A stretch of DNA of 64,000 nt from an uncultured Pelagibacteraceae bacterium (GTDB taxonomy: Bacteria; Pseudomonadota; Alphaproteobacteria; Pelagibacterales; Pelagibacteraceae): positions 1 through 64,000 of the forward strand of contig CACAFC010000002.1 of NCBI GenBank assembly GCA_902531765.1. Reading direction: 5' to 3'. Positions 10,472-13,372 of the stretch are shown here, in pieces (within the stretch, counting starts at the first letter, position 1; every line of letters begins with the position of its first letter). The translations under genes and the position numbers were made by a program. Under the pieces are notes generated by a model. The model ran no database searches, was not told the DNA's origin, and saw only the letters and a list, made by a program, of their open reading frames with translations.

Positions 10472-12172
10472 ATGCAATTAAGTAGAATAAACAGTTTAGT
10501 AGAACTTTTTTTTTCCAAGTATAAAGAAATAAACTCAGTTGCCGATAAGCCATTTTTAAAATCGTTAAAAGACAATGAAAAAGATTTTTTAACTTGGCAA
10601 CAGGTTGCATTAAAAATTCAAATTTTATCTGAATACCTAAGAACAAATTTAGCTGATGGAGACCGATGTATACTATTATCTGAAAATCGACCTGAATGGC
10701 TTATCTCTGATATATCAATAATGAATGCAGGCGGTGTCACAGTACCATTATTTACAACTTATTCAGAGAAAGATTATGAATACATCATTAATGATTGTAA
10801 GCCAAAAATTTGTATTGTCTCTAATGAAATCCAATTAAAAAAAATTGAAAAATTTATTTCAGAAGAGATTAAAGTTTTATCTATTGAAAATATAAATGAA
10901 AGAGTTGAAAACATAGAAAATATATTCGATGCATATTTAGAAAAAAAGAAATCAGATGCTCATATAAGTTTTAATCAAAATCTTGAAAGGAAAGATCTTG
11001 CTTGTATAATTTATACATCTGGAACGACTGGTAATCCTAAAGGGGTAATGCTTAGTCATGGAGGAATTTTATCAAATTGTGAAGGAGCTCAAGAAATATT
11101 AAATCAATTAGTTCAAAATAGTGAACCTACTTTTTTGACATGGTTACCGTTATCTCATTCGTATGAGCATGCAGTTCAATTTGTTCAAATCTCGCTTGGT
11201 GCAAAAATTTATTATGCTGAAAGCCTGGAGAAGTTGTTATCCAACATGTCTATTGCAAAACCCACAATTATGACAGCTGTCCCAAGATTTTACCAAAATT
11301 TGTACAGCAAAATTTCAATTAATTTTTCAAAGCAGAAAGGTTTAAAGAAAAAATTGATTTCATCCACGATTTCACTTGGAATTAAAAAACTTAATAATGA
11401 AAATTTTACACTTAGGGAAGAATTGATTAATTTCTTTTGTGAAAAACTAGTAAGAAAAAAGATCAAAAATCAGTTTGGTGCAAAACTAAAGGCCTTTGTA
11501 TCTGGGGGTGGTGCCTTAGACCAAAAAATTGGAGAATTTTTAAACGCTATAGGATTACCTACTCTTCAAGGTTACGGTCTTACCGAGGCCTCACCTGTTG
11601 TGAGCTGTAATATTCCTGGAAAAATCAGAATCGACACAGTTGGGCCCCCTTTTAAAACAAACCAGGTAAATATAGCTGAAGATGGTGAAATTTTAGTAAA
11701 AGGTGAAAATGTCATGCTTGGTTATTGGAATATGAAAAAAGAGACAGCTGATGTCATAAGGAATGGCTGGTTGCATACCGGTGACATTGGAGAGATCACT
11801 GAAGATGGAAATTTAAAAATCACCGATAGAAAAAAAGAAATAATCGTTAGTCTTGGTGGAGATAACATTTCACCATCTAAAATTGAAAATTTGTTATGTT
11901 TAAATGAAAAAATTAAACAAAGTTTTATTTATGGAGACAAAAAAACTTATTTAGTTGCATTAATTGTCTCTGAGAGTGATGAAAATAGGAAAGAAATTGA
12001 GTTTTTTTTAGAAAATTTAAATAAAACTTTATCTTTAGTCGAAAAAGTTAAAAAATTTAAATTAATTAAAGAAGAATTTTCAATTGAAAATGGAATGTTA
12101 ACACCAACATTAAAACTAAAAAGAAAAAAAATTTTAGAAAAATATAAAGATGATTTAGAAAAACTTTATTAA
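10472..12172 (+). CDS. Long-chain acyl-CoA synthetase (AMP-forming)
   Basis: This 566-residue adenylate-forming enzyme activates a carboxylic acid with ATP and CoA. The P-loop-like AMP motif is IIYTSGTTGNPKG near residue 180. GYGLTEASPVVS is near 370. GWLHTGDIG and TDRKKEIIV follow near 430-450. The mix is typical of FadD15-like long-chain ligases. The exact chain length is unknown. The ATG lies four bases after the CCA of tRNA-Leu. RNase processing of the tRNA would leave an almost leaderless mRNA. Confidence 0.9.
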   Translation: MQLSRINSLVELFFSKYKEINSVADKPFLKSLKDNEKDFLTWQQVALKIQILSEYLRTNLADGDRCILLSENRPEWLISDISIMNAGGVTVPLFTTYSEKDYEYIINDCKPKICIVSNEIQLKKIEKFISEEIKVLSIENINERVENIENIFDAYLEKKKSDAHISFNQNLERKDLACIIYTSGTTGNPKGVMLSHGGILSNCEGAQEILNQLVQNSEPTFLTWLPLSHSYEHAVQFVQISLGAKIYYAESLEKLLSNMSIAKPTIMTAVPRFYQNLYSKISINFSKQKGLKKKLISSTISLGIKKLNNENFTLREELINFFCEKLVRKKIKNQFGAKLKAFVSGGGALDQKIGEFLNAIGLPTLQGYGLTEASPVVSCNIPGKIRIDTVGPPFKTNQVNIAEDGEILVKGENVMLGYWNMKKETADVIRNGWLHTGDIGEITEDGNLKITDRKKEIIVSLGGDNISPSKIENLLCLNEKIKQSFIYGDKKTYLVALIVSESDENRKEIEFFLENLNKTLSLVEKVKKFKLIKEEFSIENGMLTPTLKLKRKKILEKYKDDLEKLY

Positions 12173-12290: not shown

Positions 12291-12347
12291 TTGACATAAC
12301 GTGTATAAAAAAATAAAAATAAGTTAATCGCGAATCAATTTGATTCG
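12291..12347 (+). promoter_or_regulatory. Candidate promoter and 5' UTR hairpin of the 25-aa basic peptide gene
   Basis: TTGACA (12291-12296) is a perfect -35. An A/T-rich -10 such as TAAAAA or AAAAAT lies 17-18 bases on. Downstream, CGAATCA-ATT-TGATTCG (12331-12347) is a perfect 7-bp hairpin in the predicted leader. The ribosome site GGGAGC comes before the ATG at 12371. The region 12173-12290 holds nothing I can name. Confidence 0.5.
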
Positions 12348-12370
12348 TTTAACTAAAAAGGGAGCTAAAG

Positions 12371-12448
12371 ATGCCTAAGAGAAGAAAAAAAGCAAAGAAG
12401 GCTAAGAAAAAAGCTAAGAAAAAAGCTAAAAAAAGAAGAAGAAGATAA
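12371..12448 (+). CDS. 25-residue Lys/Arg-rich peptide
   Basis: This ORF is too short for the track. Its product is 25 residues: MPKRR followed by K/A repeats (KKAKKAKKKAKKKAKK) and four arginines. Apart from Met, Pro and four Ala it is entirely Lys or Arg. Support for a real gene comes from a TTGACA promoter-like site, a leader hairpin, the GGGAGC ribosome site and a strong terminator 20 bases later. The composition resembles a histone H1 tail or basic ribosomal tail, so nucleic-acid binding is inferred. I do not recognise a named family. Single-exon A-rich sequence could by chance encode lysines, but the flanking signals argue against chance. Confidence 0.7.
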   Translation: MPKRRKKAKKAKKKAKKKAKKRRRR

Positions 12449-12466
12449 TAACTTAGTATTCTTTAC

Positions 12467-12510
12467 AAAAAACGCTTCTCATAACTTTTTGTGTGAGAGG
12501 CGTTTTTTTT
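12467..12510. terminator. Bidirectional rho-independent terminator
   Basis: CGCTTCTCA (12473-12481) pairs with TGAGAGGCG (12494-12502) with one G-T wobble around a 12-base loop. Eight T follow on the plus strand and six A precede it. It can stop the 25-aa peptide gene on the plus strand and carD, which ends at 12515, on the minus strand. Confidence 0.88.
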
Positions 12511-12514
12511 ACTC

Positions 12515-13372
12515 CTATATTTGTTCATCATCCTCTGAGATTGGCTCTTCAACAGTTAATTCACTTGTGCTTGAGGAAGAACCTGGTGTCTTAGCACCTT
12601 TATCTTCTTCCTTTACTTCCTTATTAAGATTTCTTTTAAGTGCTTTATCAAGTTTTTTTTGCGTATCTTCTCTTGAAACATTTAAAACAATTTGGAATTC
12701 AGAAAGAATCCGATCATAGGCTTTCTCAAACAGTTGTCTTTCACTATAAGATTGATCAATCATTAAATCATCACCTTTATTTAGATCTCTTACTACCTCG
12801 GTTAATTCATAAATTTTACCAGAAGAAATTTTTGACTCATATTCTTGAGCTCTTCTACTCCACATGGATCTTTTAATTTTTGGTTTGCTTTTTAAAATCG
12901 AAATACTTTTATTAACTTGATTAATTGTTGAAAGTGGACGTAAATGAGATTGTTTATTGACTGGCACCATACCGTTAGCTTTGTCTTTTTCAAACTTTAT
13001 AATATAGGTTTCAACATCAATACCACCAATATTAATTTTCTTAAATTCTGTAATTTGACCTACACCATGTTTAGGGTACACAACATAATCTTTAATTTTA
13101 TATTCTCTCTTTTCAGTATTTTGTTTTTTTACTTTTTTGATTTCAGGTTTAATTTCATTGCTCTTGGGAATTCTTAGATTCTCATTTGGAACTTCTGTTT
13201 TCTGTTTATTCTTTTTTCCAACTTTTTTTGGAATCTTTGAAATTTTCTTTACTTTTTTTAGGTTGATAGTTTTTGATTTTTTAACTTTTTTAGTTGTTTT
13301 TTTTTTGACTTTTGATTTGGTTTTTTTTTTAAAGGTTTTCTTTAAAATATTTTTCAAACTTATTTGGCTCAT
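12515..13372 (-). CDS. carD: CarD-family transcription regulator with Lys-rich N-terminal tail
   Basis: This 285-residue protein has three parts. Residues 1-90 are lysine-dominated (for example [18 protein letters not shown]). About 92-255 is a CarD/CdnL domain ([18 protein letters not shown], then GMVPVNK). The tail is acidic and serine-rich. CarD proteins bind RNA polymerase beta and stabilise the open promoter complex. The basic tail resembles histone H1 and could bind DNA. The start codon lies inside fdxA, a 44-base overlap. There is no alternative ATG before the CarD domain, so the overlap seems real unless a non-ATG start is used. Confidence 0.88.

What the first reader, a model, noticed from the sequence alone, without database searches (positions are those of the whole stretch)
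12291..12510. 25-residue Lys/Arg-only-like peptide with its own promoter, leader hairpin and terminator
The ORF encodes MPKRR, K/A repeats and RRRR, with 20 of 25 residues basic. A TTGACA -35, a perfect 7-bp leader hairpin, a GGGAGC ribosome site and a strong bidirectional terminator surround it. Such investment in a genome with tiny intergenic spaces suggests a highly expressed, functional micro-protein, perhaps a nucleoid- or ribosome-binding polycation, or an RNA with a coding function.
Basis: partly seen in the sequence, partly recalled or inferred. Interest (0 to 1): 0.75.

Follow-up and report, generated by a model that had tools for sequence, protein, structure and literature searches.

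The report
SAR11 mini histone-tail-like basic peptide gene
Nearly every SAR11 ocean bacterium examined carries, next to the transcription gene carD, a tiny and strictly maintained gene for a 20-38 residue peptide made almost only of lysine and arginine; it looks like a shrunken version of a longer histone-H1-tail-like protein in the sister family, and most likely coats DNA or RNA.

Summary
The ORF (12371-12448 +) is a real gene. I recovered the carD-flanking region from 173 SAR11-order (Pelagibacterales) genomes. Of these, 171 carry a homologous basic ORF in the same convergent position; the other two stop at contig ends. Changes are mostly synonymous or K/R swaps (58 synonymous, 19 K/R, 8 other). 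Synonymous codon choice breaks up poly-A runs, and length varies only by whole codons. Promoter, 5' stem-loop, SD and terminator are conserved with it. The -35 to CGAATCA spacing stays at 39-42 nt across two families, and CGAATCA is kept even where its pairing partner changes. In the sister family the same locus encodes a 76-99 aa protein of AAPKKK/KPAKK repeats, like a histone H1 tail. The family-1 genes (20-58 aa) read as miniaturised versions. No Pfam, NCBIfam or PDB relative was found, and none in phage contigs. Best explanation: a monocistronic mRNA encoding a minimal H1-tail-like polycation that binds nucleic acid electrostatically, most likely the nucleoid. Expression and binding are untested. 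It may be one of the unnamed SAR11 sORFs of a 2019 survey; I could not open that table.

The parts
12291..12296 (+). -35-like element TTGACA
   Evidence: TTGAC found in 169 of 171 loci, the two exceptions being leaders cut by contig ends
12314..12320 (+). weak -10-like element (TAAAAAT), conserved A/T-rich stretch
   Evidence: the TSS would fall near 12326-12328 (inference)
12331..12347 (+). 5' stem-loop CGAATCA-ATT-TGATTCG; 5' arm invariant across the order
   Evidence: TTGAC-to-CGAATCA spacing 39-42 nt across two families
12360..12365 (+). Shine-Dalgarno GGGAGC
   Evidence: GGAG in 170 of 171 loci
12371..12448 (+). 25-codon ORF MPKRRKKAKKAKKKAKKKAKKRRRR (19/25 K+R), stop TAATAA
12473..12510 (+). 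bidirectional intrinsic terminator shared with convergent carD
   Evidence: terminator-like stem plus T-run in 166 of 171 loci
12515..13372 (-). carD/cdnL (CarD_TRCF_RID + CarD_C) with a Lys-rich N-terminal extension; conserved convergent neighbour

Best explanation
The locus is a monocistronic gene for a minimal, intrinsically disordered polycation: a miniaturised form of a histone-H1-tail-like lysine-rich protein that Pelagibacterales encode convergently with carD. A dedicated promoter starts the mRNA a few nucleotides before a 5' stem-loop, which probably protects the 5' end or is read by a regulator. A strong SD drives translation, and a bidirectional terminator ends the transcript. The peptide, with charge about +19, binds DNA (and probably RNA) electrostatically, neutralising phosphate charge in the small AT-rich nucleoid. 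Shown here: the gene's reality, its frame conservation, its cis-elements and the long H1-like counterpart. Inferred: expression level, TSS, DNA binding, nucleoid role and direction of size change.
For: 171 of 173 carD-flanking loci hold a homologous basic ORF, the two misses being truncated contigs. Along minimum-spanning trees of equal-length ORFs there are 58 synonymous, 19 K/R and 8 other replacement changes; 68% synonymous against 21-30% expected. AAG is 27% of Lys codons against 13% in the window's long ORFs, and the longest A-run averages 7.2 against 10.5 expected from codon usage, as if faithful reading of the frame were selected. Promoter, stem-loop, SD and terminator are conserved with the ORF. 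The sister family has 76-99 aa MEELKVIFAKARKKAKKKAAPKKK...KPAKKKAAPKKK at the same place behind the same TTGAC-N-CGAATCA leader. Within family f1, the earlier-splitting genera g6 and g7 (31-58 aa) tend to be longer than g1, g8 and g9 (20-35 aa) on the CarD tree. KPAA-repeat H1-like tails bind DNA in vitro (AlgP, PMC9239181).
Against: No transcript, ribosome footprint or peptide data were available. No Pfam, NCBIfam or PDB family matches, so 'H1-like' rests on composition, repeats and synteny. The 25-mer has only one proline and no KPAA motif. Electrostatic binders could equally target rRNA, polyphosphate or membranes. Shrinkage rather than growth is not proven: the tree root is only a midpoint.
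Confidence: 0.55

Rival explanations
1. It is a small ribosome- or RNA-binding polycation: an unrecognised accessory ribosomal protein comparable in size and charge to bTHX, bS22 or eL41, binding rRNA.
For: Same size class and charge as known 24-33 aa ribosomal polycations (own knowledge); strong SD and terminator suit high expression.
Against: No match to any Pfam, NCBIfam or PDB family. Length varies fivefold (20-99 aa) by repeat number, unlike a snugly docked ribosomal protein. The long forms are AAPKKK/KPAKK repeats, as in H1 tails.
Confidence: 0.2
2. It works with CarD/CdnL: the peptide is a free-standing counterpart of the basic DNA-binding tail of CarD-type regulators and assists CarD at promoters.
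For: 171 of 173 loci are convergent neighbours of carD (loci were collected through carD, so this shows constancy of the pair, not exclusivity). SAR11 CarD itself has a Lys-rich N-terminal extension (40% K+R over 85 residues; AAPKK repeats in family f2) that most other alphaproteobacterial matches lack. [quoted passage not shown]
Against: Convergent genes in a streamlined genome can stay adjacent without a functional link. The two are transcribed separately and share only a terminator.
Confidence: 0.15
3. The conserved entity is an RNA (leader stem-loop plus terminator) and the ORF is incidental or only sets translation status.
For: CGAATCA is invariant even where its pairing partner changes. 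The stem of 6-9 bp is kept in 105 of 106 distinct leaders, against P about 0.04 per leader when the 3' side is shuffled.
Against: The coding signature is strong: synonymous excess, frame kept in all 171 ORF-bearing loci, A-run avoidance. No Rfam family matches above its gathering score.
Confidence: 0.05
4. It is a polyphosphate- or other polyanion-binding peptide (AlgP/PhaF-like role in granule organisation), not mainly a DNA binder.
For: AlgP, an H1-like Lys-rich protein, acts on polyphosphate granules (PMC9239181).
Against: AlgP has a separate helical domain that the SAR11 peptide lacks; nothing in the locus points to polyphosphate.
Confidence: 0.05

Closest known systems
Bacterial histone H1-like Lys-rich proteins (AlgP/PhaF C-terminal KPAA repeats; chlamydial Hc1/Hc2; Bordetella BpH1)
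   Same: Low-complexity K/A(/P) repeats, expected disorder, variable repeat number, very high positive charge; the family-f2 version closely resembles these tails.
   Different: 20-38 aa in most SAR11 against roughly 100-350 aa; stand-alone tail without a folded domain; almost no proline in the SAR11 genus of the window; no Pfam Hc1/Hc2 match; conserved dedicated leader.
CarD of myxobacteria (RNAP-binding domain plus HMGA- or H1-like basic tail)
   Same: Basic disordered DNA-binding tail genetically linked to a CarD domain.
   Different: Here the polycation is a separate, convergently transcribed gene, in addition to a Lys-rich N-terminal extension on CarD.
Tiny ribosomal polycations (bTHX, bS22, eL41)
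   Same: About 25 residues, mostly K/R.
   Different: No family match; length and repeat number vary widely between genera.
Unnamed SAR11 sORFs of Stav et al. 2019 (HIMB5 intergenic survey, PMC6429828)
   Same: At least three conserved SAR11 sORFs of unknown function reported from intergenic regions.

Membership tests
Histone H1-like Lys-rich bacterial proteins | K/A/P-rich repetitive, low-complexity basic domain | tested here: met
   Met clearly for family f2 (AAPKKK/KPAKK, 76-99 aa) and g7; only in K/A composition for the window's 25-mer
Histone H1-like Lys-rich bacterial proteins | Match to a curated Hc1/Hc2 or H1 family model | tested here: not met
   No Pfam or NCBIfam H1-type hit for the short or long forms at E<=10
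Histone H1-like Lys-rich bacterial proteins | Binds and compacts DNA | not testable with these tools
   No binding data
CarD with HMGA/H1-like tail | Basic disordered domain fused to the CarD RNAP-binding domain | tested here: not met
   The peptide is a separate gene; only the neighbouring CarD has a Lys-rich N-terminal extension
Tiny ribosomal proteins (bTHX, bS22, eL41) | Sequence family match | tested here: not met
   No Pfam, NCBIfam or PDB hits at E<=10; the sensitivity of these searches for such short biased peptides is low
Tiny ribosomal proteins (bTHX, bS22, eL41) | Present in the ribosome | not testable with these tools
   No SAR11 ribosome data
Known structured RNA families (Rfam) | Covariance-model match above gathering score | tested here: not met
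   Best in this interval: rhtB, 25.6 bits against a cut-off of 55, on the minus strand
Protein-coding gene (as opposed to chance ORF) | Frame kept and synonymous excess in homologues | tested here: met
   171 of 173 loci; 58 synonymous against 27 replacement changes, 19 of them K/R

The most novel reading that the evidence does not exclude
SAR11 bacteria have reduced an H1-tail-like nucleoid protein to the smallest free-standing chromatin polycation known in a free-living bacterium (20-38 aa). Its expression is set by a unique 5'-terminal element, the (A/G)CGAATCA stem-loop, that is read sequence-specifically, for example through CcrM methylation of its GANTC sites or by the peptide itself as autoregulation.
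Probability: 0.25. Interest if true: 0.8.

Novelty: new variant of a known kind. Interest (0 to 1): 0.6.

Why it matters
SAR11 is among the most abundant cell types in the sea and has one of the most compact genomes of free-living cells, yet how its nucleoid is organised is little described in the papers searched here. A gene kept in essentially every genome examined, missed by the family libraries searched and unable to give informative tryptic peptides, is a candidate major nucleic-acid-coating peptide. It also offers a clean natural series, from about 99 to 20 residues at one locus, for asking how little of an H1-like tail is enough. The invariant leader makes its regulation testable.

Tried and rejected
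Direct homology searches with the 25-mer found it in only 10 of 61 relatives because of low complexity, so I switched to synteny with carD. Pfam, NCBIfam and PDB searches gave nothing useful. The Rfam hits (rhtB, ctRNA_pT181) are below cut-off and contextually wrong; the rhtB motif of PMC2704228 sits elsewhere. A phage origin was considered: no match in viral contigs for the SD-to-ORF pattern. The hairpin as a dispersed repeat was rejected: the hairpin pattern and TTGAC-N-CGAATCA are essentially unique to this locus per genome. The 142-genome alphaproteobacterial sample gave no convincing relative outside the order. Genomes without a carD hit were checked for the leader: 17 of the 18 f1 genomes had none and G195 had only chance-like matches, so the locus as a whole is probably missing from those assemblies. 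The pattern was too strict to count presence. The second match in the own genome is a Lys-rich N-terminus of an aldehyde dehydrogenase, not a paralogue. Literature searches for SAR11 H1-like, Lys-rich or nucleoid proteins gave nothing on this gene.

Full report
WHAT IS THERE. The window comes from a SAR11 genome: contigs carrying the same SD-to-ORF pattern are titled Pelagibacteraceae, Pelagibacterales or Pelagibacter. Between an AMP-binding acyl-CoA ligase gene (10472-12172 +) and carD (12515-13372 -) lies a self-contained transcription unit: TTGACA (12291-12296), a weak -10, the hairpin CGAATCA-ATT-TGATTCG (12331-12347), GGGAGC (12360-12365), the ORF (12371-12448), and a strong stem with A-run before and T8 after it (12473-12510), which can serve carD too. 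The peptide MPKRRKKAKKAKKKAKKKAKKRRRR has 13 K, 6 R and 4 A: 19/25 basic, not 20. It is the only such ORF in the window, and simulations give none.

IS IT A GENE? The 25-mer is too short and low in complexity for ordinary homology search (10 of 61 relatives), so I used synteny. CarD was found in 216 of 247 genomes of the order. I read the flank of 173 of them. In 171 a basic ORF lies in the same convergent position; the other two stretches end at contig ends. 157 belong to the window's family (20-58 aa, most 21-35) and 14 to the sister family (76-99 aa). Along minimum-spanning trees of equal-length ORFs, 58 codon changes are synonymous, 19 swap K and R, and 8 are other replacements. The synonymous share is 68% against 21-30% expected for these codons under transition biases of 1-8 (changes were treated as independent, and loci were chosen for having a basic ORF, so the p-values of 1e-12 or less are optimistic). 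Length differences are whole codons. Lys is coded by AAG twice as often as in the window's long ORFs (27% against 13%), Arg almost only by AGA, and the longest A-run averages 7.2 against 10.5 expected. This is what selection for faithful decoding, or against slippage, in this frame would give.

THE CIS-ELEMENTS. TTGAC is present wherever the leader is complete (169 of 171), CGAATCA in 169 (one true variant, CGAATCG in L077; one truncated contig), and SD GGAG in 170. The offset from TTGAC to CGAATCA is 39-42 nt in both families, while CGAATCA to ATG ranges from 36 to 63 nt. So the motif is fixed to the promoter, and a normal promoter geometry would put it within a few nucleotides of the transcript's 5' end (inference). 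A stem of at least 6 bp including this arm exists in 105 of 106 distinct leaders; the exception folds with a bulged stem. The 3' arm takes several forms (GATTCG, GATTTG...TTTAAGTGA...TTATGTGA), so structure is kept by different sequences while the 5' arm stays invariant. Sequence-specific recognition is therefore likely, but by what is unknown. The motif holds GANTC sites, and six of seven SAR11 genomes tested have a RAMA-domain (CcrM-type) methyltransferase match; GANTC methylation in Pelagibacter has been reported (PMC13076061). This is a lead only. In genera g5 and g7 a CUCC upstream pairs with the SD (pairing probability 0.96-0.99), a hint of translational control that is lacking in the window's genus. 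The TTGAC-N-CGAATCA combination is essentially a single-locus element in each genome.

WHAT IT IS RELATED TO. In the sister family the same place, behind the same leader, encodes MEELKVIFAKARKKAKKKAAPKKKRKAAKRKPAKKKAAPKKK..., an H1-tail-like repeat protein. On a CarD tree the families separate cleanly. Within the window's family, g6 and g7 (31-58 aa) split off before the g1/g8/g9 group (20-35 aa). Reduction from a longer H1-like ancestor is the simplest reading; the root is not independently fixed, so expansion in the sister family is not excluded. No curated family matches, no convincing relative was seen in 142 genomes across the class, and the pattern is absent from viral contigs.

HOW IT PROBABLY WORKS. 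A +19 disordered peptide will bind nucleic acid (general knowledge of polycations). Resemblance of the long form to H1 tails such as AlgP/PhaF (KPAA peptides bind DNA; PMC9239181) makes nucleoid coating the best guess (0.55). Ribosome binding (0.2) and a role with CarD (0.15) remain open. The CarD link is suggestive because SAR11 CarD carries its own Lys-rich N-terminal extension, and in Myxococcus basic disordered domains are interchangeable as CarD's DNA-binding tail (PMC4374960). The 5' stem-loop is most simply an mRNA-stabilising element of a highly expressed transcript, but its invariant sequence asks for more. Expression, translation and binding are not shown here. Tryptic proteomics cannot see the peptide because nothing longer than MPK remains.

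NOVELTY. I found no paper describing it. I file it as a new variant of a known kind: an H1-tail-like polycation cut down to about 25 residues.

Noticed in passing
window 12515-13372 (-): CarD/CdnL of Pelagibacterales has a Lys-rich N-terminal extension (40% K+R over 85 residues; AAPKKVVKKK repeats in some sister-family genomes) that most other alphaproteobacterial CarD matches lack.
   Followed up: partly
L002 (own genome contig C6, 53461-55575): An aldehyde dehydrogenase gene begins with a roughly 65-residue Lys/Arg-rich, H1-tail-like N-terminus (MATKRKKKAKPKTNKRKTK...), odd for a metabolic enzyme.
   Followed up: no
window 12331-12347 and homologous leaders: CGAATCA is invariant in 169 of 171 loci although the pairing 3' arm changes; it contains GANTC, and CcrM-type RAMA-domain proteins occur in most of the genomes checked.
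   Followed up: partly
L049, L053, L055 (genera g5, g7): A CUCC upstream pairs with the SD of the peptide gene (pairing probability 0.96-0.99), suggesting translational control absent from the window's genus.
   Followed up: partly
L059-L072 (sister family): Two terminators in tandem between the H1-like gene and carD in most family-f2 genomes, instead of one shared bidirectional terminator.
   Followed up: no
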